48,919 nucleotides of DNA from Candidatus Aenigmatarchaeota archaeon (lineage in GTDB: Archaea > Aenigmatarchaeota > Aenigmatarchaeia > GW2011-AR5 > JAGGXF01), in assembly GCA_021157845.1 (NCBI GenBank), contig JAGGVU010000010.1, forward strand, positions 1 through 48,919. The letters are read 5' to 3'. A program made the position numbers and the translations under genes. The notes under the pieces were generated by a model, which worked only from the letters and a program-made list of their open reading frames with translations, did no database searches and was not told the DNA's origin. Below, piece after piece: positions 1 to 36,676 of this stretch; position 1 is the stretch's first letter; each line of letters starts with the position of its first letter.

Positions 1-3000
1 CAACAAGCGATATGTATCAACTTGTTAAGGTTGAATCTGTAAAAAAAATTGGTGGAAAATCGAGCATATATACATTTAATTACGGCTCTAATCTTGATGG
101 AGAAGAGGTTGTTAAGAATATTGATGGATTATCAGCTAATTACAAGAAAGCTACTGCTTCTGGGTTGACAAGAGAAATCAGAAGCAGATGGAATGTTATC
201 CCTGATGAAAATGGTTTAGTCAAGGGAACAGTCACAGACATATCTGACATTGGTGGCGACTGGAATAAGATGACTGAATTTCTTAAAAAAGAAGGTGCGC
301 CAGATGGTGCTTATAATCTATACAGATTCACAAAAACAGAAGATGGATGGAAAGTTGAAAAAGCATCAGGGCCCAGAGGAAAAATTGATAAGTGGGTGGA
401 AACAGATGAGCTAAAGGGCGTTAATTTTGACATCGAAGGTGTAAAAGAAGGAGACCAAGTTCTTTTGTTTAAAATGAATCCAGATGGAAGTAGGATTGCT
501 GCTGAGTTTAGGTCAGACGCAGTAGATTATTATAGCAAATGCATATCGCAGATGAAAAAGGTCGGATATACGGAAGATGATATTCTCAACGAATTTATGA
601 AAAGCAACTTTATGGGCGTGAATGGAGATATTAAATTTTCTAAGCTTGTTGACGATGATGGAAAAATTGCATATGCTTTCTTTGGAACAAAGGCAACAGA
701 AGGAGATTATTATTATGTTTACATATATAAAGATGGTAAAATTGAACTGAAAGATAAATGGACAAGGGGGGGAATTAGAAACCTTCAAAATGATGGATAT
801 AAATTCAGCGGGACCAGTTTAAAGGGCTACGCAGTAAAAGAAACAGGGAAAGTGAAATGGTACGATGGCGCCAAGGTTGATTCTGAACTTGAGGAGGGAT
901 TTGTCGGGTTTGATGACGCTGATATTAATAAAAAATTCTTCCCAGCTGAGACTGTATTCAGTTCAGACGAGCTAAAAATCGAGAGAGCATTTTTTACAGA
1001 AATAAATGGCAAGCCTTTCATCGTTTCTGACGAAGCCATAACTGATACTGTTACAGGTGAAGTCTACAAATTTATAGACGGAAAAGCAACTTTGGACGGA
1101 GGCGATTTGATTGTAGAGAATGTTGATGGCAAATTAAAACTTAACTTTGTCGGAGAGTTAAAAGTAGAAACAGAAGTAAACGGGGTTTTGGGAATTAATA
1201 AGTACGGTCAGGAAAGTTTACAGAACTTCTATCAAAAAGCTTTGAATAGTTTTGTGGAAGAGCAAGGACTGATATTCACAAAAGAAGGAAAAATTGCTTA
1301 TATCAAATATCTAGAAACAGAGGGAGCCACTGATATGGCTGGAGGAAAAATACTCGAAGATGTTAAAGCAATAATAAAAAATTATGAAGATGTTGGATTT
1401 AAGTATTTTGGGAATTTTCATGTTCATTTCTATCAGGAAAAGCCATCTGCTTTGGATTGGATGAGTAAATGTGCAGAAGTACAAAGTGGGTTAGAAAAAC
1501 CGTATATTAACATTCTGTATATAGATAAAGAAACAAAGGAACCAACACTTTACATTTATAAAATGAATATGGGTGAGCAACGGAAAGTTAGTGAAGCGGT
1601 GCGTTATGCGCAAGAAGAAGTTGGTGATCCTGCTCGTGCTATTGCTCCAGAAAGTTCTTTTGAAAAAGTAAATGAAGTTTCTCCTACTAATGGTGAATGC
1701 AAAATTTTATCAGATAATCCGATTTCCGTTAAAATTTCGTATAAGGGTCGTAGTGATCTCTTTACATATTCACCAGAAGAGTTTAAAGCTAAATTTGGTG
1801 TTGAACCGCCCGGAATAGATCAGGTCAAAAATATGAAATTAAATGATGTTTTCGGTATACAGACACCAAAAGAGGTTTCTGTTATAAGGACAGATGACAA
1901 GATTGTGTTCTTTAAAGACGGAAAAGAAGGAATCTATATAAAACCTAGTAAGGAAGTGCGATGGGTAGAACCATCTGAACCAGGCAAAATAAAATTAGAT
2001 GGTGGAAAAATTATCGACCTAACTGATTCATCAAACCCTAAGGTTATAGAGCCAATAAAGCCAGTTACAGAGCCAAAACCAATATCAGAGCCAATAACAG
2101 GCGTGTCAGACCAAAAGCCATTTTTTGAGGGCTGGGGAGACAAGTTCAATCAGTTCAGCGGAAAGATGAAAAGAGGAATTTCATATCTTTTCTCAGGCAC
2201 CAAATCTATAGCAGGAAAGGGCAAAGCAGTTGGCGGAAGTATTGCTAACAAGATTAATTTGGAAACGCTGCGGGGCAATCAGCTAAAAGAGATGGCAGCA
2301 GCACTTGGCATTTCACCATTTGCAAAAGGTGAGATTAAGCCATTTACCTATAAGACAGAAATAACCATAGGTGATACTAAATATAAACTAACCTTTTATC
2401 CAAAGAAAGGGGAGCTGACTTTATATGACAATGTAAAAATAACTGGCAATGTTGAAATAGACGGAAAGGCAACAAAGTTTGAGATTTATGGAGATAAAAT
2501 AAAACTTTCTAATGATATTAAAGACCTTTCTGAAATTGGCAACTTAAATGAATACAAATTTTCTGATGTTCAGATTCATTTAGGAGATGATGGTGTAATA
2601 AATCTTAATAATGGTAAGTTTTCTGACTTGTGGAAAGAACTCCGAAAGCCTGGGAAACGAATATGGAAGACTCCGTCTGATATGGCTGAGAGTATTTCAC
2701 TTAAGAAATTAAAAAATCTGAAGAAATATATAGGAAAGTCAGCTGGTAGCGATGCTCTCACTTCACTTACTCCCTATTTTGATAAATTAAAATCTGCTAT
2801 TAAATCCGGGAATACTGGAAGCGCTGCAAAGATATTATCTTCGATATATAATAAGCTATTAAATATGCCACTGAAGGTTTCTGGTGGAGCTGAGCGTTTT
2901 GCTGGGGTTTCCGTCTCAGGCGCGAGCAAACTGTTCAGTATAAAGACGAGATTAAATTCTATTTTTTCTTATGTCAAAAAGATGAATACGCTTTCAAAGC

Positions 3001-6000
3001 AAAGTTCAAGTTTCGAGGTTGCAACTGACTTATTTTCAAAAGAAAAGGTTTTGTCAAATGAGCTGAAACTAAAATCATCTTTGGTTACGTATGGCTTAGA
3101 AGACAAGTCAATCAAGATTGAATTTACAGGAACCGGCGCTGTGGGTGATATTGACTATAAATTAACAATCAAAGATGGGCAGGTTAGGATCGTTGGAAAA
3201 TCAGGTATTGGCACTATAACTTTTGAAGGCTCTACTGATGAGATCAAACTACCAGAAAATAAATTCATAATCGGAAATGACGAAATCTCTGTCAAAAAAA
3301 TTAGTAATGTTGAAATTAATGGCAAATCTATTGATGTAACTACTGATAACCCGGCTAAATTGTTTGACGAATTAGGAGACATTTACGGGAAAGATATTTC
3401 AAAAGTATTGAAAGAATCCGGACTGGAAGACACTGCTCTTAAGATTACATTCACAGGAGCAGATGGTACGAAATATAAATTATCAATAAGCGACGGACAA
3501 GTTGTTATAAGACATAAAGGCCTTTATGGTACAGAAACTTGGACAGAATCCGCTGATAATGTCAGAATTACGAAAAACAAACTCATAATAGGTGACGAAG
3601 AAATTTCTATTGATAAAATCACAAATGTAGAAGCTGGAGATAGTTTAAGAAATACAAAGCCTGTGGCTGTGGAAGAAAATGATAATCTAGAGGGTGCTGT
3701 CAAAAAATTGCAAGCTGATTACGGTCTGCCAGCATCTGAAACAAAAATACCAACTGATGATAAAATAATATTTTGGAGCAGAAATCAGTTTTGGAATAAT
3801 AAGGGAGAATTCGTAGATGATACTAAGATGCTTTATGTGGACGAAAATGGAAACTTAATCTACAAATATATGGACAACGGTGTTGTAAAAACAGAAATTG
3901 CACAATCTGTCAAAATGGACTACGACGGTGTGAAAATAAAAATAAATGGCGAATGGATATCATTGAAAGATGTTAAAACATTGAATATAAACGGTGTAAA
4001 ATATTCTGTTAAGGACAAGGTCATTGGTATAATCTCACCTATTGATGGTGGGGGAGAAGTTATCATTCCAACAAGCATTAAGGAACTAAAATCAGCAGGA
4101 AACAGTGTGGAAGCTGTATTTGATTCAGAGGAATTTTTCTCTGGCATTTCTGGAACAATGAAGAAAACACTGCACCTAGCATCACATGTGGAGATGACAA
4201 AATTAAGCTCAGGTGATGTAATCGTAGACTTCAAAGGAAGTAATGTCATAGATGCGGATAAAATGATTTTAACAGGCGCTGCTGAAAGTGAAAATTTAGA
4301 AGCTTATGCAAAAAAAATTACTAGCAGTCTTGAGGGTAGTGGCGTTTTAAGGCCAAGAATAGAATTAAGTCCTGATAACATTCAGTCAGCTGTTAAAGCT
4401 TATGAAGCCAACGATATATCTAAGTTTGAAAATACAGACTTTGGAAAATTATTCAAATCTAATTCAGAAGCTTATCTATTGTTAAATGACAATGATATTA
4501 TCAAAGTTGCTAAGGACGACGGTGGCCTGAAATTGCTCGATTCTGATGGTAAATTCCTAGGAAATCTTTTTGTTGATGACGAAGGGTTAAAAATCATAAA
4601 AGAAAATGAAGTATTTGATTTATCAAAACTTATTGGCGGTGCTGATTTAAAAACTATAAAAGCATTTAGTGAGGGAACAGGTCTTGGCACAAAGTTTGTC
4701 AAGAATTTTGGGCCAGGAGATTTCACGACGATGGCACTTTTTGCGTTTATGGCAAAATGGAGTGCTTCAGGAGTTGGTGGGGATTATCAAAAACGATATT
4801 TCTTAAGGCAGGCTGCTTACGAAATCCCAGAGCTTATCCCTGAAAATCTGGCAGCAGCTTTGGCAGGAACAAACCTTGCTGTGCTTCCTGTAGTGGCGTG
4901 TGAAATATATATTGAAGAAGTGGCGGATCAGGTTATACTACAAAATGACTTCAAAAAGCTGACAGGGCATGACTACAGTGAACTTATATATGAGCATAAT
5001 CCAGTTACAGAAGTTGGCAAAAGAATAAAGAGGTTTGTATGGGAGCCAGAAACAAATAATCTCAATGACGAATTTACACAAACTGTGTCTGAAATTTTGT
5101 CAGCAAAGGCACAGTCATGGACAAAGGATAAAATCAACGAAGAATGTCTCTCTGGCAAAGATATAACTGTTGACGATATTTATAATGATATTTTAAGTCA
5201 TGCATACGGTTACAGTGGCTTTGATTTTGATGAGATAACTGACTATATATCTTCTGATGAATTCAAATCTAAATTTAATTTAGGAGATGGAGAAATATGG
5301 GCAAAAGATAAAATTGTGGAAATAAAAGAGCCGGTTAATCTTGAAGGCATTTTCGGAGATAATATAATTAATAATTTTGTTTCTGGCATGGTTACACCAG
5401 TTGCGTCTCTTTTTGATCGTGGTGAAGAAACCACCACAGTTGGAGAAAATTTGGCGAAGTCAAGGTATGCGCTTGGTATTGATACATCTCTGGTTAGCTC
5501 ATCATCTGGAGATGAGGAAAATGTTCAGAATCTCTTGGTTTTCGCAATAGGCGACAACCCAGATAAAATTTGGTCTAAGTATAAGGATGAAGTAGATAAA
5601 ATGTGGTCAGAATATGGCACAACAAAGTATTATGATAAAGATGCGAAAGGCGAATATTGGGAAATTACAATTGATAAAGAAACTGGAAAAATTATTGGCA
5701 TGGACAAATATGAGTTTACAGTAGACCTACCTCAGTATAACCCGACTTCCATAGAATCTAAATTTGGTCAGGGGCTAACGCCTAAAATTGGAAAACCAAA
5801 AATTAAACATGTAAGTTACTATGGCTCGATATTTCAATTGGCAGACGAGGAAAACAAAAAACTCGCAGATACATTGAACGATTTTATGTTCTATGGGCTG
5901 GGCGATTACATAACCTCTCTAAACACAAGGGAAGATGTGGATAATGTGCTTAAAGAGTTCAAAGATTCTGAACAGTACAAAAGTTTTGTAGAAAACCATA

Positions 6001-9000
6001 AAGATATTCTTACGACTATGTTTGGAGAGCCGGATGTTCCAGACTCTTATATAGTTGACCAGATGTTGGAACAAACTAAAATAAAGCTGGAATGTGAAGC
6101 TTTAGGAGCAGGAGAAATTATATTCAGCGACGAAAAAATAGCAGAAGCCTTGAAGAAAGCGGACAAAAATAATAACGGACTACTTGACGCAGATGAGGAG
6201 GAAGAATTTAAGAGTGTGCTGGCTGATAGTATAGGACAAAGATTTACGTATAGTTTTCGTGAGGGATATCATTCTCTTCTTAACACAATAGCAACTTTTG
6301 CTCGTGGCTCAAAATATCATGAGAACCTAAAGAAAAACCAGAGGTTTGGATGGATAACAGATGAGTGGGAAAATTCGGAAGGATTTTCTGCAACAGAAAA
6401 TCTGGAAACACTAGACAGAAACCTTGATGTTCTGGACGCTTATAAGGATGTCATGGAAATTAAAATCCATGAAGCAAAAGATTCTTTGGTGGCTATAGCA
6501 GCTGAAGCATTAATGAACGCTGACACAGACCACAACGGAATAATTGACGAAGATGAATATAATAACTATGTAACTATTTTTAATAATAAATGTGACGAGT
6601 TGCTAAAAGATATAAATGAGAGAGAAGGTGTGAGTGTAACTAGGGGAGATATTAATAATTTGATTTTAAAGTTAACCAGCCGAGAGACCAATCTTGATAA
6701 TTTATTGTTTGCTTCTGTGCGAAAACAATTATTAACTGACAAAGAGCTTATATCTGACCCTGAAAAGTTTAAAGAAGCAGTCGAGAATCAGTTTAGAAAT
6801 AATGAAGAAAAACAGGTGCAGTTGCTGGGCGAATATTATGCTTACTTAAATGTCAACGGTCTCATATCTCCTGCAGAAGAAGATTATGGTATTGATATTA
6901 ACCTACTTGCAACATATATTAGTAAATATATTAGTGAAGGCATTGACAACGGCGATATAAATAATATAAACTTTGAGAAGATAGACAAAATTTTGGCCAA
7001 AGACCCCGCACTTAGCCGTGCTTATCTGGGTGGTGCAGGAGGACTTGCTGAAAAAATTGCGTCCATACTTAGAAAAGCAGATGCGAATAATGACGGAAAG
7101 CTCGATGAGAATGAAAAGATTTATGCCTCTCAGTGTCTCAATGATCTTTTCCAGTTTTTTGACAAAGATTCATTGGAAGGTATAAACAAAGCTGTACAAA
7201 GTGCTGTTACCAAAGCTATGGAGGAGCACCCTCGTGAGGAACAACTTCCTGAATCTGAAAAAGAGTATATAATGAGAGAAAAACAGAAACAGCCAAAAAT
7301 AGGGAAAACTTATGAAACTACCATAACGACTGAAAACGGAAACGAGGTTGTAGGAACTATAACATACACAGGAAAGAATACCTATATTCTAAAATATACG
7401 ATGAATGGAATTCAGGTTATAGATGAAAAAGGTTCAGACTATCGCTCAATTAAATATTCAGAACCGGTTAAGACCACTATCGGCATCCCAACAACGGGTA
7501 GCACTGATGTGACCATATGCAAGATAATTTACAAAGATACAAATGGTGACGGGAATATTAGCATCGGTCCGCAGAAAGGAAAGGTCGGAGACACCGCATA
7601 TTACTTTACAGATTGCGGTGAAACTGATTTGAGCAAGGCCATAAAAATAGACTACCATTACACGAATAGTGGGCTTACTCCGTCTAACAGGTATTATAAG
7701 GCAGGTGACTGGGGTCTGACAGACAAGGATAAAGGGAAATGTTATGGCAATTGTTACTTATGGTCTAATACATCTGGTCAAGGCAAACTGTATATGTATG
7801 GCTCCAAAGGGCAGATAATTGGTTCATGTGTAGATAAAGATGGAGATATGCAATGCGATAAAGACGAGAAAGGAAATATAGATTATAAACCATATAATAC
7901 AGACGGCGATATGGTTCTGGATAGTTCGGATGATGACGATGACGGCGATGGATATCCTGATATAATAGAAGTGGCATGCGGTTCCAGCCCAAATAGTGCG
8001 GGTTCAATACCTTCGCAGGATTGTTTATCCAAAGTTTCGGGAAAAAGAATATCAACAGGAAGCTATGAAGAAGGAAATTATATTATATATGAAAGTGTTA
8101 AAATAGAGGATTGTGATAATGATGGCAAGATGGAAAAGAATATTGTCAAGCAATATTATAATAAAAAGACAGGAGCAAAAGGAAAAACAACCTACACATG
8201 CAGTCCGTTATTAGGCATGAAGTCGTGTTCTGTCGGTGTAACAGTTAATGTAGCTTGTAGAGTAGGCATTTGTAGAGGTGTTATGAAATCAACCTGTGTT
8301 TCAACCCCATATGGCACAGCATGGCAAGATTCTGGAAATTGTATAGTTGATGAAAAATGTTCAGAGAGCCAAGGCATAGAACAAGAGGATGAAAAAGATA
8401 AAGAAGATAAAAAAACCACCACAACAACTCAGAGTTTGAAAGACAAATGTTTGGAAATATGCAAAGCAATGGGAGAGGAAAATTGTGAGGCAATGTGTGC
8501 TGGTATAACTTCTACAACCTTGCCATCAAACTGTAGAAGAAGCTGCGGTGCATGCTCCTCAAAAGGGAAACATTATTGTATAACATATTGTAACGGAAAG
8601 CCTGTTGATGGCTCAGGTAGCTGGGATCCGTGTACACCAACTGCGACACCAAGCACAACGCCCCCAACAACATCAAAATACCCCGACTGTGAATTTGGAG
8701 TTGAGTATAATGGAAAGTGTTATGGAGGTGTTACAGATACGGTAAATGGGAAGTACTATAATTGTAATTGTAAATATAACCCAGACTGTTGTAGAGAATA
8801 TTTTGAGGCAAAAGACTCAGCTCAATCACCACCAACAACTTCATCACCCCCCACCACAGCGTCTCCATCAACCACAACCCCGCCAACTACATCAGCACCA
8901 AGCTGCAGAATAAGTTGCGGGGCGCCAGGCTCTACTGGTAAATGCTATTGCATGACTATATGCGATGGAAAACCTGTTGATGGCTCAGGTCATTGGGTCG

Positions 9001-9014
9001 TTTGTCCAACCTAA
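1..9014 (+). CDS. Giant secreted/surface protein, 5' partial (frame open to window edge); JAMM-like motif, duplicated beta-rich module, EF-hand/TSP3-like Ca-binding loops, Thr/Pro linkers, Cys-rich C-terminal repeats
   Basis: Single ORF of at least 3000 aa; no stop upstream of the ATG at 12; motifs HVHFYQEKPSALD, DKNNNGLLDADEEEEF, DTDHNGIIDEDEY, DANNDGKLDENEK, DTDGDMVLDSSDDDDDGDGYPD; TTTTTQS and PPTTSSPPTT linkers. Confidence 0.9.
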   Translation, partial: TSDMYQLVKVESVKKIGGKSSIYTFNYGSNLDGEEVVKNIDGLSANYKKATASGLTREIRSRWNVIPDENGLVKGTVTDISDIGGDWNKMTEFLKKEGAPDGAYNLYRFTKTEDGWKVEKASGPRGKIDKWVETDELKGVNFDIEGVKEGDQVLLFKMNPDGSRIAAEFRSDAVDYYSKCISQMKKVGYTEDDILNEFMKSNFMGVNGDIKFSKLVDDDGKIAYAFFGTKATEGDYYYVYIYKDGKIELKDKWTRGGIRNLQNDGYKFSGTSLKGYAVKETGKVKWYDGAKVDSELEEGFVGFDDADINKKFFPAETVFSSDELKIERAFFTEINGKPFIVSDEAITDTVTGEVYKFIDGKATLDGGDLIVENVDGKLKLNFVGELKVETEVNGVLGINKYGQESLQNFYQKALNSFVEEQGLIFTKEGKIAYIKYLETEGATDMAGGKILEDVKAIIKNYEDVGFKYFGNFHVHFYQEKPSALDWMSKCAEVQSGLEKPYINILYIDKETKEPTLYIYKMNMGEQRKVSEAVRYAQEEVGDPARAIAPESSFEKVNEVSPTNGECKILSDNPISVKISYKGRSDLFTYSPEEFKAKFGVEPPGIDQVKNMKLNDVFGIQTPKEVSVIRTDDKIVFFKDGKEGIYIKPSKEVRWVEPSEPGKIKLDGGKIIDLTDSSNPKVIEPIKPVTEPKPISEPITGVSDQKPFFEGWGDKFNQFSGKMKRGISYLFSGTKSIAGKGKAVGGSIANKINLETLRGNQLKEMAAALGISPFAKGEIKPFTYKTEITIGDTKYKLTFYPKKGELTLYDNVKITGNVEIDGKATKFEIYGDKIKLSNDIKDLSEIGNLNEYKFSDVQIHLGDDGVINLNNGKFSDLWKELRKPGKRIWKTPSDMAESISLKKLKNLKKYIGKSAGSDALTSLTPYFDKLKSAIKSGNTGSAAKILSSIYNKLLNMPLKVSGGAERFAGVSVSGASKLFSIKTRLNSIFSYVKKMNTLSKQSSSFEVATDLFSKEKVLSNELKLKSSLVTYGLEDKSIKIEFTGTGAVGDIDYKLTIKDGQVRIVGKSGIGTITFEGSTDEIKLPENKFIIGNDEISVKKISNVEINGKSIDVTTDNPAKLFDELGDIYGKDISKVLKESGLEDTALKITFTGADGTKYKLSISDGQVVIRHKGLYGTETWTESADNVRITKNKLIIGDEEISIDKITNVEAGDSLRNTKPVAVEENDNLEGAVKKLQADYGLPASETKIPTDDKIIFWSRNQFWNNKGEFVDDTKMLYVDENGNLIYKYMDNGVVKTEIAQSVKMDYDGVKIKINGEWISLKDVKTLNINGVKYSVKDKVIGIISPIDGGGEVIIPTSIKELKSAGNSVEAVFDSEEFFSGISGTMKKTLHLASHVEMTKLSSGDVIVDFKGSNVIDADKMILTGAAESENLEAYAKKITSSLEGSGVLRPRIELSPDNIQSAVKAYEANDISKFENTDFGKLFKSNSEAYLLLNDNDIIKVAKDDGGLKLLDSDGKFLGNLFVDDEGLKIIKENEVFDLSKLIGGADLKTIKAFSEGTGLGTKFVKNFGPGDFTTMALFAFMAKWSASGVGGDYQKRYFLRQAAYEIPELIPENLAAALAGTNLAVLPVVACEIYIEEVADQVILQNDFKKLTGHDYSELIYEHNPVTEVGKRIKRFVWEPETNNLNDEFTQTVSEILSAKAQSWTKDKINEECLSGKDITVDDIYNDILSHAYGYSGFDFDEITDYISSDEFKSKFNLGDGEIWAKDKIVEIKEPVNLEGIFGDNIINNFVSGMVTPVASLFDRGEETTTVGENLAKSRYALGIDTSLVSSSSGDEENVQNLLVFAIGDNPDKIWSKYKDEVDKMWSEYGTTKYYDKDAKGEYWEITIDKETGKIIGMDKYEFTVDLPQYNPTSIESKFGQGLTPKIGKPKIKHVSYYGSIFQLADEENKKLADTLNDFMFYGLGDYITSLNTREDVDNVLKEFKDSEQYKSFVENHKDILTTMFGEPDVPDSYIVDQMLEQTKIKLECEALGAGEIIFSDEKIAEALKKADKNNNGLLDADEEEEFKSVLADSIGQRFTYSFREGYHSLLNTIATFARGSKYHENLKKNQRFGWITDEWENSEGFSATENLETLDRNLDVLDAYKDVMEIKIHEAKDSLVAIAAEALMNADTDHNGIIDEDEYNNYVTIFNNKCDELLKDINEREGVSVTRGDINNLILKLTSRETNLDNLLFASVRKQLLTDKELISDPEKFKEAVENQFRNNEEKQVQLLGEYYAYLNVNGLISPAEEDYGIDINLLATYISKYISEGIDNGDINNINFEKIDKILAKDPALSRAYLGGAGGLAEKIASILRKADANNDGKLDENEKIYASQCLNDLFQFFDKDSLEGINKAVQSAVTKAMEEHPREEQLPESEKEYIMREKQKQPKIGKTYETTITTENGNEVVGTITYTGKNTYILKYTMNGIQVIDEKGSDYRSIKYSEPVKTTIGIPTTGSTDVTICKIIYKDTNGDGNISIGPQKGKVGDTAYYFTDCGETDLSKAIKIDYHYTNSGLTPSNRYYKAGDWGLTDKDKGKCYGNCYLWSNTSGQGKLYMYGSKGQIIGSCVDKDGDMQCDKDEKGNIDYKPYNTDGDMVLDSSDDDDDGDGYPDIIEVACGSSPNSAGSIPSQDCLSKVSGKRISTGSYEEGNYIIYESVKIEDCDNDGKMEKNIVKQYYNKKTGAKGKTTYTCSPLLGMKSCSVGVTVNVACRVGICRGVMKSTCVSTPYGTAWQDSGNCIVDEKCSESQGIEQEDEKDKEDKKTTTTTQSLKDKCLEICKAMGEENCEAMCAGITSTTLPSNCRRSCGACSSKGKHYCITYCNGKPVDGSGSWDPCTPTATPSTTPPTTSKYPDCEFGVEYNGKCYGGVTDTVNGKYYNCNCKYNPDCCREYFEAKDSAQSPPTTSSPPTTASPSTTTPPTTSAPSCRISCGAPGSTGKCYCMTICDGKPVDGSGHWVVCPT

Positions 9015-17669: not shown

Positions 17670-18170
17670 ATGCTGGGTAACAAAAAAATAATATATGACA
17701 CCTCCTCATTTTCTTGTTCTGTTCCCTATTTTTTACCGACATTTAAATATGGTTTTTTTGACGAGTCTGGCAGTACAGATATGATTTTGGTGGGTGGTTT
17801 TTCAAATAATGGCGTTCTTGCTGATAAACAATATAAGAAATTATTTTCGCAGGACGATTTTGCACAGATGATGGACCAAGTCTGTTATATGTCAATAGCT
17901 AAAAACACATTTCCAGCTACAAACAACCAGAGAAAAAATGAAGAGAAGGCAATTTCATTAATGGAATCGCTTTTTGGATTAGATAAAATTTATATCGACT
18001 CTTTTAACGGAGAAAAAATTGACAACGATGAGGTTACTATGGTGCCGCATGCTGATTCAACTTATCCTGGCGTTCTGGCTGCAGAATGGTGGGCCAGAAA
18101 AATAAGAAAAAATATAGGAAACCCCAATTATCATCTGGATGAGAGGGTTCTTGAACTAATAATAGAATAG
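17670..18170 (+). CDS. Hypothetical protein; FFDESGS motif faintly reminiscent of DUF3800
   Basis: 166 aa ORF directly upstream of rnhB; motif YGFFDESGSTDMILVGG. Confidence 0.65.
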   Translation: MLGNKKIIYDTSSFSCSVPYFLPTFKYGFFDESGSTDMILVGGFSNNGVLADKQYKKLFSQDDFAQMMDQVCYMSIAKNTFPATNNQRKNEEKAISLMESLFGLDKIYIDSFNGEKIDNDEVTMVPHADSTYPGVLAAEWWARKIRKNIGNPNYHLDERVLELIIE

Positions 18171-19437: not shown

Positions 19438-20373
19438 ATGACACATATAGAAATAATTTTTTTGGGGACAACAGCGTCTATACCGACAAAATACAGAAAT
19501 CACGCGGCTATTTATCTGAAATATCAGAGCGAGAACGAATATTCTTTTCTCTTTGATTGTGGAGAGGGAACGCAGCGACAGATTTTTTCTTCTGGGATGA
19601 ATTTTATGCGTTTAGATAATATATTTATTACTCATTGGCATGCTGATCATTTTGCAGGTTTACTTGGGCTGCTGGAAACTATGTCTCTTGAAAAGAGGAC
19701 AAAGCCACTATACGTTTACGGTCCAGAAGCGTCAAAGTTTATAGAAGTTTTATCAGAGCTGGGGTATTCTTCAAAAGGATTTAAATTAATCCCGAAAGAC
19801 GTTCCTTTTGATGGTAGAGAAGAAACAATACTAACAGAAACAGATGAATACCAAATAATTTCTGTTCCAGTCAGTCATGGCGTGCCTGCTGTTGCATATG
19901 CTTTTGCGGAAAAAGACAGAATAAAAATAGATAAGAAAAAAGCTGCTAAATACGGGATGCCAAAAAAGGGTCGGCCATACAAAACGCTAAAGGAGAAAGG
20001 TTTTGTTATCTATAAAGGAAGGGAGATAAAGCTAGAAGATGTTTCTTTTGTAGAGAAAGGCAAAAAGGTTGTTTATTCTGGCGATACAAAACCAGTTAAA
20101 AATTTAATAGAGCTTGCAAAAGACGCTGATGTGTTGATACATGATTCAACATACTTTGAGCAGGAATTTGACGAAAGGAAGCATTCCACTGCTGAAGATG
20201 CTATAGATGTCTTTATCAAAGCAGGAGCAAAGCAGCTGGTGCTGACGCACATAAGCAGGAGATATCAGTCTGAAAAAGAATTATATGAGCTGCTGAAAAC
20301 TATAGTGAAGAAAAAAAACTTGGATATGAAAAAAATAAAAATAGCAAGAGATTTTATGCACCTGAAGATATAA
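19438..20373 (+). CDS. rnz: Ribonuclease Z (tRNA 3' processing endonuclease)
   Basis: FLGTTASIPT, FDCGEGTQRQI, FITHWHADHFAGLLGLL, VVYSGDTKPV, HSTAEDA. Confidence 0.95.
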   Translation: MTHIEIIFLGTTASIPTKYRNHAAIYLKYQSENEYSFLFDCGEGTQRQIFSSGMNFMRLDNIFITHWHADHFAGLLGLLETMSLEKRTKPLYVYGPEASKFIEVLSELGYSSKGFKLIPKDVPFDGREETILTETDEYQIISVPVSHGVPAVAYAFAEKDRIKIDKKKAAKYGMPKKGRPYKTLKEKGFVIYKGREIKLEDVSFVEKGKKVVYSGDTKPVKNLIELAKDADVLIHDSTYFEQEFDERKHSTAEDAIDVFIKAGAKQLVLTHISRRYQSEKELYELLKTIVKKKNLDMKKIKIARDFMHLKI

Positions 20374-20381
20374 GTGGTATT

Positions 20382-22253
20382 ATGGTTAGAAAGCTGAAGC
20401 GCGAGCTTAATCTTAAGGAAATTGTCTTTTTGTGCATGGGCGCCATAATAGGAACCGGTATATTTTTAATACCTGCGATAGGTGCCAGAATACTTGGTTT
20501 TTCCTCCCTGCTTGTATGGCTAATAACAGGTTGCTTGGCCATAATCATGTCAATGCTCTTTGCAGAGTTAGCAAGCATGTTTGACGAGTCAGGCGGAATA
20601 TATATATATGTTAAAAAAGCATTCGGGAATAAAATAGCTTTTATTGTTGGCTGGACAGCATGGGTTATAAGCTGGGTAACAATTGCGATGCTTGTTGCAG
20701 GCGGGATAAATTATCTCGGTTTTATATTTAACTTGACAAATTTTTCAAGATTGATTTTATCCATTTCTATGATTTTTCTTTTTACATACATAAATCTAAA
20801 AGGCATAAAATACGGCGCAAGAACACAAATTATTTTTACAGCTTTCACATTTTTAATTTTAGGTGCATTCGTCCTTGTTGGGCTAGGATTTATGGATTTT
20901 GGTTCCATACGGTTTGAACCGTTTTCTATTACTAATTTTCTTTTAGCTGCTGCCATAATCATCGAGCCATATATTGGCTGGCAAGATGCAACCTTTTTAG
21001 CAGAAGAAACAAAGAACGCAAGAAAAATTATACCAAAAGGCATAGTTATAGGAACAATTTTAATAGCAATAATCTATTTTTTAGTTACGCTTGTCGCACT
21101 TGGAAGTCTTGGTGTATTGGAAGGAGGCATGGAAGCGTTTACATTAGCAGAAGCTCCTTTAAGTTTGTTGGCAGAAAGGTTTTTTGCTCATGGGGGAATT
21201 TTATTCTCTTTAGGTGCGGTTATTGTAATTTTCGGGTGTTTGAACAGCTGGATAACAACTTCTCCACGTCTCCCATATGCCATGGCCAAAGAAAATATGC
21301 TTCCAGACTTTTTTAGAGAACTAAACAAAAATTCTGTTCCGGCAAATGCATTAATATTTCAGCTGTTTATCAGCAGCCTGATAGTACTTTCTGGTATTAT
21401 GACAGGGGGTTTTGAGCTCTTCTTAAAGGCAATGATACCTTTAGCGATATTTATTTACGGAATCGTTTTTTTGGCTTTTATCAGGCTGAGAAAGTTGTAT
21501 CCTAAGAGGAAGAGATATTTTTATGTTCCGTTTGGCAAAATTTTTGCAGTCTTTTCAATTGTTTATTTAGTTATACTCTTGGTGCAAACGACACCAGATA
21601 ATTTTTTAAGGGGGGCAACACTTGTAGCCATGGCGATACCATTTTATTTTTTAGTAAAAATGCAGGCCGATAAAGCTTTTCAGGCAAAATTTTTTGATAA
21701 ATTTTCTTGGCTATGGGACAGGTTCTTTCCAATATGGTATTCTGAGAAAGAAGCAAGACGGGTTATGAAATACGCAAAAGTAAAATACGGACAAAAGGTG
21801 TTAGAATTTGGTGCCGGTTCTGGTTTAACAACTCCCTATTTATCAAGAAGGGTTGGAAAAAGTGGTGTAGTTGTTTCTACAGACATATCTGAAAATCAAT
21901 TAAGAAAAGCTAAGGCCAAAATTGAGCAGAAAAACCTGACAAATGTCATCCTGGTCAAAGAAAAAGAATTGAGCCCGTTTGAGCCAGAGATGTTTGACGC
22001 TCTTTTATCAGTCTGCGTCTTAGAGCATTTTAGTGACCCTGTTCCCAGAATAGAAAAATTATTAGAATTTTTAAAGAAAGGAGCCCACTTTTGTTTTCTC
22101 AGTTTTGGAAAAACATTCTTAATCCCGCCACCTCATTTTCTCAAGGATGAAGAGTCAATTAGAAAAATGTTTGAAAGGGCCGGTTACAAAGTGAAGGTAT
22201 ATCAAAAGAAGAGGTTGTTTGCCAAATACTGGTTTATTTACGGGGAAAAATAA
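20382..22253 (+). CDS. Fusion: APC-family amino acid permease (N-term) with class I SAM methyltransferase (C-term, ~21720-22253)
   Basis: LKEIVFLCMGAIIGTGIFLIPA (APC TM1) and GQKVLEFGAGSGLTTPYLSRRVGKSGVVVSTDIS (motif I) in one uninterrupted frame. Confidence 0.9.
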   Translation: MVRKLKRELNLKEIVFLCMGAIIGTGIFLIPAIGARILGFSSLLVWLITGCLAIIMSMLFAELASMFDESGGIYIYVKKAFGNKIAFIVGWTAWVISWVTIAMLVAGGINYLGFIFNLTNFSRLILSISMIFLFTYINLKGIKYGARTQIIFTAFTFLILGAFVLVGLGFMDFGSIRFEPFSITNFLLAAAIIIEPYIGWQDATFLAEETKNARKIIPKGIVIGTILIAIIYFLVTLVALGSLGVLEGGMEAFTLAEAPLSLLAERFFAHGGILFSLGAVIVIFGCLNSWITTSPRLPYAMAKENMLPDFFRELNKNSVPANALIFQLFISSLIVLSGIMTGGFELFLKAMIPLAIFIYGIVFLAFIRLRKLYPKRKRYFYVPFGKIFAVFSIVYLVILLVQTTPDNFLRGATLVAMAIPFYFLVKMQADKAFQAKFFDKFSWLWDRFFPIWYSEKEARRVMKYAKVKYGQKVLEFGAGSGLTTPYLSRRVGKSGVVVSTDISENQLRKAKAKIEQKNLTNVILVKEKELSPFEPEMFDALLSVCVLEHFSDPVPRIEKLLEFLKKGAHFCFLSFGKTFLIPPPHFLKDEESIRKMFERAGYKVKVYQKKRLFAKYWFIYGEK

Positions 22254-26316: not shown

Positions 26317-27627
26317 ATGAATACGCAAAAATTTGCAATTTTAGTAATTTTTATACTTCTTTTTTCTATTGGTGTGCAATCTGTAGCTGTCCAGCTACCT
26401 AAATGTTCTTCTAATCAAGACTGTGACGATAGGAATCCGTCCACAATCGATATTTGTACAAATCTTGGCAACTGTGTTCATACCTATAATGTGCATAGAT
26501 ATAATGCACCAAAAACAACACCTACAACGATTCAACACACATATCATGTATGCTTGGCAATATGGGACCCTGTTTGCGGATCAGATGGAAGAACTTATTC
26601 CAATTCATGCTATGCAGAAAACGCGGGTGTTAGTTGGACACCCGGAGCTTGCCAAAACGGAGGAACCTCGTCTCATAAGTGCGTGACTGACAGAGATTGT
26701 GCAACCTTACAGTTGCCAGCTGTATATCCAGGCGGCAGGTGGAAATGTGAAGACGGGAAATGTGTTTTTAGGCAGATAAGAACTAGATTTCCAATAGTTG
26801 CTGCAGGAACTTGCAACGAAGTATGTAAACAAAAAGGTTATGAGTCAGGAACCTGCCGAGGTTATGCTATTACCGCTTCTTTACCAGAGCATGAGCATAT
26901 ATGCGAAGAAGGTGAAGTAGCCATTGGACAGACATCTGATTGTTATATTCCGGGTGGGTTAGTAGGTGGTGGAAGAACGTGCTGCTGCTCAGGTATAGAG
27001 TCAGAATCAGGAGAAACTGAAGATTATGGTGAAGAGACAACAACAACCCAGTCAAGATATGTCCAGCTACCTAAATGTTCTTCTAATCAAGACTGTGATG
27101 ATAGGAATCCGTCCACAATCGATATTTGTACAAATCTTGGCAACTGTGTTCATGCCTATAATGTGCATAGATATAATGCACCAAAAACAACACCTACAGT
27201 AGCACAACAGCCAGAATGTCAAACAGCTGATGACTGCACAGGTACGATATGTCCAGCAGCTGACGAAACACAAGGATGCGTCAATGGAATATGTACATGC
27301 GTCCGACAGCCGACATCGGCCAGTCAGAGAATAGACAGAACAGCACTACTTGATACTGCTTTAAAGCTTGAACAGGTGAAAATAAAGCTCATGATTATAA
27401 GGACAAGGGCAGCGGCCATATCAGATTATTATAATTCAATTAGCTCTGAAGATGCTGGAAAATGGGATGATTTTGTTGCGAAGATTGATCAAATGCTTTC
27501 AAATATAGATGACATAAAAAGTGATATTTCTAATGCTTCAACAGAAAACGATATTAATTTGATTAAACAAAAAATAGACATGCTTTATGATATGATAGAC
27601 CTGTTGATAAATATTATATTATCTTGA
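26317..27627 (+). CDS. Secreted Cys-rich protein with Kazal-type domain and internal duplication
   Basis: N-terminal signal peptide-like segment; CLAIWDPVCGSDGRTYSNSCYAENAGVSWTPGAC matches Kazal pattern; VQLPKCSSNQDCDDRNPSTIDIC repeated. Confidence 0.88.
   Translation: MNTQKFAILVIFILLFSIGVQSVAVQLPKCSSNQDCDDRNPSTIDICTNLGNCVHTYNVHRYNAPKTTPTTIQHTYHVCLAIWDPVCGSDGRTYSNSCYAENAGVSWTPGACQNGGTSSHKCVTDRDCATLQLPAVYPGGRWKCEDGKCVFRQIRTRFPIVAAGTCNEVCKQKGYESGTCRGYAITASLPEHEHICEEGEVAIGQTSDCYIPGGLVGGGRTCCCSGIESESGETEDYGEETTTTQSRYVQLPKCSSNQDCDDRNPSTIDICTNLGNCVHAYNVHRYNAPKTTPTVAQQPECQTADDCTGTICPAADETQGCVNGICTCVRQPTSASQRIDRTALLDTALKLEQVKIKLMIIRTRAAAISDYYNSISSEDAGKWDDFVAKIDQMLSNIDDIKSDISNASTENDINLIKQKIDMLYDMIDLLINIILS
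26389..26526 (+). repeat. Intragenic duplication, copy 1 (138 bp, 2 mismatches to copy 2)
   Basis: Near-identical to 27061-27198, offset 672 nt. Confidence 0.95.
27061..27198 (+). repeat. Intragenic duplication, copy 2
   Basis: Near-identical to 26389-26526. Confidence 0.95.
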
Positions 27628-34575: not shown

Positions 34576-34674
34576 GGGCCGATAGATCAGCCTGGAAGAT
34601 TGATGTCTATCAATCGGGTAAAGATCGCTACCTTGGCATGGTAGAGGCCTCGGGTTCAAATCCCGATCGGTCCA
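34576..34674 (+). tRNA. tRNA-Ala (anticodon GGC) with ~25-nt D-loop insertion
   Basis: GGGCCGATAGATCAGCCTGGAAGAT[...]CGCTACCTTGGCATGGTAGAGGCCTCGGGTTCAAATCCCGATCGGTCCA; G3:U70. Confidence 0.9.
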
Positions 34675-35716: not shown

Positions 35717-36511
35717 ATGAAAGTTTTGATAGTTTCCAAAAGAAATGATGAAGGCATTAAAAAAGCAGAAGAGTTGAAAGACATACTATCCAAAAGGGGG
35801 GTAGAAGCTATTTTTGGAGAGATGTGCGATGGAGCAGAGTGCTCATTTATAAGAAAATTTTCAGGCGACTATGTTGTTACTTTAGGCGGAGATGGAACAT
35901 TTCTGTTGACTGCTCAAAACCTTTCCAAAGAGATTCCAATTTTGCCTGTTCGTATAGAAGGAGTCGGATTTCTCTGCGATTTAGATTGGAATGAATTTTT
36001 AGGCAATATAGATAGATTTGTAAATGAAAAATTTTCTTTCAATTATTTCCCGCGCATAGGAATATACAACAAAATTAAGGCAAGGGCGGTGAATGAAATT
36101 GTTATCGCGCGTGCAAGGCTATCAAAAATTCTTAGAATTGAATTTAAAGTAGGTGAAACCAAGTTTAATGTAAAGGGAGATGGCCTAATATTCTCAACTG
36201 CTTTGGGTTCATCTGCTTATAGCCTGTCCTCGGGCGGCTCACTGATAGATCAGAGTTTGGATGTTATTCATATAGTTCCTATTTCACCATTTAACACAAA
36301 AATTAAGCCTTTTGTAGTTTCTGCTGACAAAGAGATAAAAATCAAATTAAAAAACAAGGGCGGTTCGGTTGTTGTTGACGGGCAAAAAGAAGAAAGCCTT
36401 GAAGCAGGGGAAGAAGTTACAATAAAAAAATCAAAACCTTTAAAAGTTATAACTTTTAAGGATAATAATATTTTTAGGAAATATAAAGAAAAGTTTTTAG
36501 AGGGCCGGTAG
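35717..36511 (+). CDS. nadK: NAD kinase
   Basis: VVTLGGDGTFLLTAQ and TALGSSAYSLSSGGSLID. Confidence 0.94.
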   Translation: MKVLIVSKRNDEGIKKAEELKDILSKRGVEAIFGEMCDGAECSFIRKFSGDYVVTLGGDGTFLLTAQNLSKEIPILPVRIEGVGFLCDLDWNEFLGNIDRFVNEKFSFNYFPRIGIYNKIKARAVNEIVIARARLSKILRIEFKVGETKFNVKGDGLIFSTALGSSAYSLSSGGSLIDQSLDVIHIVPISPFNTKIKPFVVSADKEIKIKLKNKGGSVVVDGQKEESLEAGEEVTIKKSKPLKVITFKDNNIFRKYKEKFLEGR

Positions 36512-36676
36512 CTTAGCCTGGTGAACCTTTTCTTTTTTAAAAAAGAAAAGCTTCAATGGAAAAGAAAAATTCGGGCAATTAGAGCGCTACGCTGATAAAT
36601 TTTCCACAAGCGCTTTTTGAGCGTTAGTGAGAAAAGGGCTTCGTAGAGGCCGGGAGTTCAAATCTCCCCCGGCCCA
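36502..36676 (+). tRNA. tRNA-Ile (anticodon GAT) with D-loop (~36523-36578) and anticodon-loop (~36598-36640) insertions
   Basis: GGGCCGGTAGCTTAGCCTGGT...TAGAGCGCTACGCTGATA...CGTAGAGGCCGGGAGTTCAAATCTCCCCCGGCCCA; stems pair. Confidence 0.88.

What the first reader, a model, noticed from the sequence alone, without database searches (positions are those of the whole stretch)
20382..22253. Amino acid permease fused to a SAM methyltransferase
One uninterrupted 623-aa frame joins a full-length APC transporter to a class I methyltransferase (VLEFGAGSGLTTPYL, DALLSVCVLEHFSDPVPRIEKLLEFL). The pairing suggests uptake coupled to modification of the substrate, or a membrane-tethered lipid/quinone-type methyltransferase. 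I do not recognise this as a standard architecture.
Basis: partly seen in the sequence, partly recalled or inferred. Interest (0 to 1): 0.7.

Follow-up and report, generated by a model that had tools for sequence, protein, structure and literature searches.

The report
Archaeal permease fused to methyltransferase domain
A single archaeal gene really does make one protein that joins a full membrane transporter to a methyltransferase-type domain; the same fusion turns up in more than ninety small archaeal genomes, has an altered transport site, and looks like an undescribed transporter family whose tail either senses or uses the methyl donor SAM.

Summary
Window 20382-22253 (+) is one 623-aa frame: a 12-helix APC transporter (Pfam AA_permease_2, residues 9-401, 2.3e-50) followed by a class I methyltransferase domain (Methyltransf_11, 474-572, 5.5e-14). 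It is not an assembly error or a one-off. Thirty-one of 156 genomes of the same phylum (Ca. Aenigmatarchaeota) hold the full-length fusion without internal stops. So do many of 236 genomes sampled from a second archaeal phylum, and single genomes in two more. I collected 101 full-length copies, 31-58% identical to the window protein in its own phylum. The tails form one family, which points to one old fusion. The transporter half carries an almost invariant Glu (E195; E in 97, D in 3 of 101) where ordinary APC transporters have the bulky TM6 gate residue. The SAM motif is intact in 31/32 Aenigmatarchaeota but in only 41/69 other copies, although the fold is kept. Relatives sit beside small CBS proteins and cation exchangers or pumps, and eight carry a voltage-sensor-like domain. 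My best reading is a SAM-sensing transporter; methylation of the transported substrate is the main rival. Substrate and activity are unknown. I found no description in the papers searched.

The parts
20382..22253 (+). Fusion gene: APC-type transporter + class I SAM-methyltransferase domain, 623 aa
   Evidence: orthologues
20406..21584 (+). APC transporter domain (residues 9-401, AA_permease_2)
   Evidence: Pfam 2.3e-50; closest solved structure BasC 6f2g, 3e-39
20451..20459 (+). TM1 G24-T25-G26, counterpart of the G-(S/T/A/V)-G motif whose backbone binds the substrate carboxyl in APC transporters
   Evidence: role from PMC8399266
20847..20849 (+). T156, at the place of BasC Lys154 (TM5 Lys fully conserved in LATs)
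   Evidence: alignment; T/S in 83 of 101 fusions; role of Lys154 from PMC6472337
20964..20966 (+). E195, at the place of BasC Phe199 (TM6a thin-gate residue)
   Evidence: alignment; E in 97, D in 3 of 101 fusions; W/F in 7 of 7 ordinary APC paralogues aligned
21075..21077 (+). Y232, at the place of BasC Tyr236 (TM7, contacts substrate carboxyl); kept in the window-side clade (13/13), not in the main clade
   Evidence: alignment; role from PMC6472337/PMC8399266
21657..21746 (+). Juxtamembrane linker (about residues 426-455), D430 and F433 conserved in the phylum
21747..22250 (+). C-terminal class I methyltransferase-fold domain (about residues 456-623)
   Evidence: Pfam PF08241 474-572, PF13847 470-577; PDB 3dh0 9.4e-14
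21798..21827 (+). SAM motif I VLEFGAGSGL (residues 473-482)
21882..21884 (+). D501, acidic residue after strand 2 (SAM ribose ligand in this fold); 32/32 in the phylum, 47/69 elsewhere
19438..20373 (+). Neighbour, probably co-transcribed: RNase Z-like gene ending 8 nt upstream; near the fusion in 10 genomes of the phylum (context, not part of the protein)
   Evidence: name from sequence motifs/own knowledge

Best explanation
The gene makes a polytopic APC (LeuT-fold) transporter with a covalently attached cytosolic class I methyltransferase-fold domain. It belongs to an old, undescribed archaeal family that most likely arose by one fusion. SHOWN: the fusion, its spread, its conservation, its altered transport site (Glu for the TM6 gate residue; no TM5 Lys), and intact SAM-binding signatures in this phylum. 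INFERRED: the protein transports a small solute, in this lineage probably an amino acid or amine with a positive charge that pairs with E195. The tail mainly works as a SAM-binding regulatory module that lets the cell's SAM level set transport activity. In several relatives the tail has lost SAM binding and keeps only a structural or other-ligand role. Within the Aenigmatarchaeota the tail may also still catalyse.
For: Full-length fusions in 31/156 genomes of the phylum and in three other archaeal phyla. A tail profile built from only three window-side sequences ranks all 101 fused tails above nearly all unfused methyltransferases held; identities of the two halves covary (r 0.48; 0 of 500 permutations as high). 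Transporter-site residues are near invariant: E195 97/101 (D 3), R296 100/101, Q327 100/101, E209 100/101. The tail is always retained in these copies, yet the SAM signature is lost in 28/69 copies outside the phylum; in those 28 the best-kept tail columns include F597, G621, P582 and K623, away from motif I, and information content falls only from 2.59 to 2.31 bits per column. A retained fold without its catalytic signature fits a regulatory or structural role. Context of relatives: a two-CBS protein (a class that binds adenosyl ligands; own knowledge) is the next gene in 13 genomes of 5 families, mostly 2-9 nt away; a Na/Ca-exchanger-family gene (PF01699) lies just upstream in 8 Aenigmatarchaeota genomes (gaps -3 to 33 nt) and two positions up in 3 more, replaced by a P-type ATPase in two. 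KimA (PMC6994465) is a precedent for an APC-fold transporter with a cytosolic domain proposed to bind a nucleotide regulator.
Against: In the window's own phylum the SAM motif is intact in 31/32 copies and D501 in 32/32, as expected of a working enzyme. The window itself has no CBS or exchanger gene beside the fusion; the nearest CBS homologue in the genome is unlinked (35% identity). A catalytic histidine is neither shown nor excluded (549 is H in 15, Y in 17 Aenigmatarchaeota). No binding or transport data exist. The structure model failed (pLDDT 39.7), so contacts between the domains are unknown.
Confidence: 0.43

Rival explanations
1. Vectorial modification: the permease delivers a small amine or amino acid and the fused methyltransferase methylates it as it enters (or methylates it before export), trapping or consuming the substrate.
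For: Both domains on one chain; SAM motif I and D501 intact throughout the Aenigmatarchaeota; the tail is as well conserved as the permease there (2.55 vs 2.57 bits per column). Nearest solved matches include small-molecule methyltransferases such as plant phosphoethanolamine and alkaloid N-methyltransferases. An acidic residue in the transport site would suit an amine substrate.
Against: 28/69 fusions elsewhere lack an intact SAM signature but keep the domain. No biosynthetic gene recurs next to the fusion; recurrent neighbours are CBS proteins, cation exchangers or pumps, RNase Z and tRNA synthetases. No enzyme family cut-off is met (NCBIfam demethylmenaquinone methyltransferase 43.9 vs 235 bits).
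Confidence: 0.3
2. The transporter moves an inorganic cation or polyamine rather than an amino acid; the permease part works like a KUP/KimA-type cation symporter under membrane-potential control. (This concerns the substrate and could combine with the best explanation.)
For: Acidic residue at the TM6 gate position, loss of the TM5 Lys, and loss of the TM7 Tyr in the main clade. Neighbouring cation exchangers, P-type ATPases and Kv-type channels. A voltage-sensor-like domain fused N-terminally in eight relatives. KimA uses a TM6 Glu for proton coupling (PMC6994465).
Against: In the window lineage the G-T-G motif and Y232, both carboxyl contacts in amino acid transporters, are kept. KimA's K+-binding Asp36 in TM1 has no clear counterpart. 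Best sequence match is an Ala/Ser/Cys exchanger. The voltage-sensor link is confined to one clade of another phylum.
Confidence: 0.14
3. The tail is an ordinary membrane-located methyltransferase (lipid, quinone or protein acceptor) and the permease half is mainly an anchor or an independent transporter.
For: Weak similarity to UbiE/MenG models; membrane attachment would bring a lipid acceptor close.
Against: Transport-site residues are more conserved than SAM residues across the family; a full 12-helix transporter is a costly anchor; no match above any lipid/quinone methyltransferase equivalog cut-off.
Confidence: 0.08
4. Assembly or prediction artefact: two genes fused by a lost stop codon.
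For: None found.
Against: The same junction in 31 genomes of the phylum and more in three other phyla, all without internal stops.
Confidence: 0.01

Closest known systems
BasC / SLC7 L-type amino acid transporters (PDB 6f2g)
   Same: Best solved match to the permease half (3e-39, residues 16-427); APC fold, TM1 G-x-G motif, TM7 Tyr kept in the window lineage
   Different: TM6a gate Phe199 is Glu195; TM5 Lys154 is Thr156; a methyltransferase domain is attached
Ordinary APC permeases in the same genomes (e.g. G000 C6, 28% identical)
   Same: Same Pfam family and length of transporter domain
   Different: W/F at the gate position (7/7 aligned), mostly K or E at 156, no C-terminal domain
KimA / KUP K+/H+ symporters (PDB 6s3k)
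   Same: APC fold with a cytosolic C-terminal domain; acidic TM6 residue important for transport (PMC6994465)
   Different: KimA's cytosolic domain has a PPAT-like fold, not a methyltransferase fold; its K+ ligand Asp36 has no clear counterpart here
Class I SAM-dependent methyltransferases (Methyltransf_11/25/31; PDB 3dh0, 3mgg)
   Same: Motif I, acidic strand-2 residue, order of motifs
   Different: Always joined to the permease in this family; motif decays in many relatives; ends in a conserved Y-G-x-K-like tail
Fused MFS transporter / spermidine synthase proteins of bacteria (from memory, not tested)
   Same: A transporter joined to a Rossmann-type group-transfer enzyme domain
   Different: MFS not APC; aminopropyltransferase not methyltransferase; no homology tested here

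Membership tests
APC superfamily, AA_permease_2 (PF13520) | Pfam score above gathering cut-off over the full model | tested here: met
   172.2 vs 27 bits, profile 1-406/427
APC superfamily, AA_permease_2 (PF13520) | TM1 G-(S/T/A/V)-G motif | tested here: met
   G24-T25-G26
APC superfamily, AA_permease_2 (PF13520) | Bulky gate residue at start of the TM6 unwound region (described as semi-conserved) | tested here: not met
   E195 aligns with BasC Phe199; E/D in 100/101 fusions. Semi-conserved only, so this does not exclude APC membership
SLC7 LAT (L-type amino acid transporters) | TM5 Lys (BasC Lys154), fully conserved in LATs | tested here: not met
   T156; T/S in 83/101, no K
SLC7 LAT (L-type amino acid transporters) | TM7 Tyr (BasC Tyr236) | tested here: met
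   Y232 in the window and 13/13 window-side fusions; not in the main clade
KUP/KimA potassium symporters | TM1 Asp (KimA Asp36) and TM6 Glu233 | tested here: inconclusive
   Profile match to 6s3k at 3.7e-10 but no residue-level alignment was obtained; TM1 position 26 is Gly here
KUP/KimA potassium symporters | K+ transport | not testable with these tools
   Needs uptake assays
Class I SAM-dependent methyltransferases | Rossmann-type domain with motif I (E/D-x-G-x-G-x-G) and acidic residue after strand 2 | tested here: met
   VLEFGAGSG, D501
Class I SAM-dependent methyltransferases | Methyl transfer activity | not testable with these tools
   No assay; acceptor unknown
UbiE/MenG quinone methyltransferases | Equivalog model score above cut-off | tested here: not met
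   NF001243 43.9 vs 235 bits
APC-MTase fusion family described here | APC + methyltransferase-fold tail on one chain, TM6 Glu | tested here: met

The most novel reading that the evidence does not exclude
The family is a new class of ligand-gated (and, in one clade, voltage-sensing) transporter: an APC-fold carrier for a cationic solute whose activity is set by a cytosolic methyltransferase-fold SAM gauge, helped by a CBS partner protein. In one clade a voltage-sensor domain is added, giving a voltage sensor-carrier-SAM-sensor protein.
Probability: 0.15. Interest if true: 0.82.

Novelty: new variant of a known kind. Interest (0 to 1): 0.57.

Why it matters
Both halves are familiar, but their fixed union is not a described architecture as far as I could find. 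It is widespread in small-genome archaea thought to depend on imported nutrients. It offers a testable link between SAM supply and transport, and its altered transport site points to a substrate or coupling mode unlike ordinary amino acid permeases. The decay of SAM motifs in a retained domain is a natural test of enzyme-to-sensor evolution. The voltage-sensor version would be a rare case of a voltage sensor on a carrier.

Tried and rejected
Artefact or lost stop codon: rejected by orthologues. Structure prediction from the window plus L001/L002 only (other loci were not clearly allowed): unusable, pLDDT 39.7, so no fold search was run. Free-standing orthologue of the tail in the phylum: none close among 59 genomes; fused tails at E<=6.5e-21, best unfused 2.2e-11. 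Known quinone or arsenite methyltransferase identity: scores far below cut-offs. Plasmids: no record covers 80% of the fusion. Viral contigs: only separate permeases or a separate methyltransferase. Phages: no match to the tail. Literature: three searches pairing permease/transporter with methyltransferase, and one for Aenigmatarchaeota permeases, found no relevant paper. Linked CBS gene in the window genome: only an unlinked homologue. Bacterial genomes could not be searched, so absence in bacteria is untested beyond plasmids. KimA residue-level comparison was not possible.

Full report
THE OBSERVATION. The frame at 20382-22253 (+) is open for 623 codons, starts with ATG and has no competing long frame on either strand beyond a 110-aa antisense ORF. 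Pfam finds AA_permease_2 at residues 9-401 (2.3e-50) and Methyltransf_11 at 474-572 (5.5e-14). The upstream gene, an RNase Z-like metallo-hydrolase, ends 8 nt before the start; a short GGTG-like sequence precedes the ATG.

NOT AN ARTEFACT. Two named Ca. Aenigmatarchaeota genomes carry the same protein at 58% identity over the whole length (L001, L002). In a scan of 156 genomes of the phylum, 31 hold a full-length copy with no internal stop, spread over ten families and down to 31% identity; three more have copies cut by contig ends. A model from 29 sequences of this phylum finds full-length copies in other archaeal phyla: many of the 83 hits among 236 sampled genomes of one large phylum (two searches, same genome set), one of 19 in a second, one of 10 in a third. 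I read 101 full-length fusions in all (32 from this phylum, 69 from others). The genomes of the other phyla are unnamed here, so I give no names.

ONE FAMILY. A tail profile built from only the window, L001 and L002 ranks all 101 fused tails above nearly all unfused methyltransferases present in the loci. The exceptions are a contig-truncated fusion and one or two unfused methyltransferases (one from a viral contig) among the weakest fused tails. Pairwise identities of the two halves covary (r=0.48, 0/500 permutations as high; within the phylum r=0.69). In the transporter tree most fusions form a clade of 88 (support 100); the window, L001/L002 and ten others lie outside it, next to a few unfused permeases that share the same TM6 Glu. 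One early fusion with some losses fits; the deep order is not resolved, so two fusions of related tails are not formally excluded.

TRANSPORTER HALF. The nearest solved structure is the Ala/Ser/Cys exchanger BasC (3e-39). In that alignment E195 faces BasC Phe199, T156 faces Lys154 and Y232 faces Tyr236. Published work makes Phe199 part of the external gate, Lys154 fully conserved in LATs and needed for the transport cycle, and Tyr236 a carboxyl contact (PMC6472337, PMC8399266). E195 is Glu in 97 and Asp in 3 of 101 fusions, against Trp or Phe in 7/7 ordinary APC paralogues aligned. Position 156 is Thr/Ser in 83/101 and never Lys. Y232 is kept in 13/13 window-side fusions but not in the main clade. 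So the transport site is altered in a uniform way: it carries an acid where others carry a bulky gate. The window lineage keeps the carboxyl-binding features; the main clade has dropped the Tyr. From this I infer a positively charged substrate or a changed coupling mode; this is not shown.

TAIL. In the Aenigmatarchaeota motif I and D501 are intact (31/32 by my joint criterion; D501 32/32), and the tail is as conserved as the permease (2.55 vs 2.57 bits per column). Elsewhere 28/69 fail the criterion: D501 becomes H, N, S or G in 17, and G477 is lost in 10. The domain is kept in all of them, and columns such as F597, P582, G621 and K623 stay conserved. (These copies were chosen as full-length, so loss of the whole tail would be seen only as unfused permeases, of which a few with the same TM6 Glu exist.) A catalytic-only role does not predict a decayed motif in a conserved fold; a regulatory or structural role does. 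The strongly degenerate copies are all in other phyla, so the argument applies to the window by analogy only.

NEIGHBOURS. In 13 genomes of five families the next gene is a small two-CBS protein, usually 2-9 nt away. In 11 genomes of the phylum a Na/Ca-exchanger-family gene lies upstream, directly so in eight with gaps of -3 to 33 nt; a P-type ATPase takes that place in two. CBS pairs bind adenosyl ligands, SAM among them in some proteins (own knowledge; MJ0100 and MJ1225 are among the PDB matches). The window has neither gene beside it; its best CBS homologue is on another contig. In the other phylum some neighbours are Kv-type channels and single voltage-sensor-like proteins. Eight fusions forming one clade carry an N-terminal four-helix, Arg-rich segment matching the KvAP voltage sensor (3.5e-5; PF00520 in 5/8).

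HOW IT MOST LIKELY WORKS. I rank a transporter with a SAM-binding regulatory tail first (0.43), vectorial methylation of the substrate second (0.30), a cation or polyamine carrier reading third (0.14; it concerns the substrate and could combine with the first), and a tethered lipid/quinone methyltransferase last of the serious options (0.08). The first two differ in one measurable outcome: SAM changes transport without product, or a methylated solute appears.

NOVELTY. Neither Pfam, NCBIfam, the PDB nor the open papers searched describe this architecture. UniProt/InterPro architecture tables and bacterial genomes were not available, so 'undescribed' is provisional. I call it a new variant of a known kind: an APC transporter with a new, conserved domain union and an altered gate.

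Noticed in passing
L139:6619-8952, L170:4645-6972, L171:4540-6852, L173:3949-6231, L178:3992-6349, L180:4054-6411, L190:3944-6283, L194:3663-5963: Eight relatives carry an N-terminal voltage-sensor-like domain (four helices, Arg-rich S4) fused to the APC-methyltransferase protein; they form one clade.
   Followed up: partly
L137, L139, L156, L178, L180, L187 (single voltage-sensor-like genes); L137, L141, L187, L190 (Kv-type channel genes with T-V-G-Y-G-D): Stand-alone voltage-sensor-like proteins and K+ channel genes lie next to APC-methyltransferase genes in another archaeal phylum, sometimes overlapping on the same strand.
   Followed up: partly
L139:4695-12132, L137:4342-10967: Two or three divergent APC-methyltransferase paralogues stand close together in one genome.
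   Followed up: no
L164:4366-6927: A fusion with an additional C-terminal region of about 227 aa matching DUF3108 (3.5e-7).
   Followed up: no
L107:5404-7644: A permease with the same TM6 Glu but, instead of the methyltransferase tail, a long C-terminal region that looks like two helices plus coiled coil.
   Followed up: no
window 26317-27627; L195:44-1297: Archaeal secreted Cys-rich protein with a Kazal-type motif (PF00050, 1.4e-7); an unlinked protein of the same genome shares its C-terminal helical segment and lies just upstream of the CBS homologue.
   Followed up: no
window 12-9014: 3000-aa protein with almost no Pfam match, weak EF-hand-like repeats and a Thr/Pro/Cys-rich C-terminus, probably a giant surface protein.
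   Followed up: no
window 36502-36676: Rfam finds a 175-nt tRNA match (probably intron-containing) that ARAGORN does not list; ARAGORN instead lists tRNA-Ala at 34598-34673, which Rfam at gathering threshold does not.
   Followed up: no
window 17670-18170: 166-aa ORF beginning like a DUF3800-type protein (FFDESGS; from memory) but without Pfam match; may be a truncated remnant.
   Followed up: no
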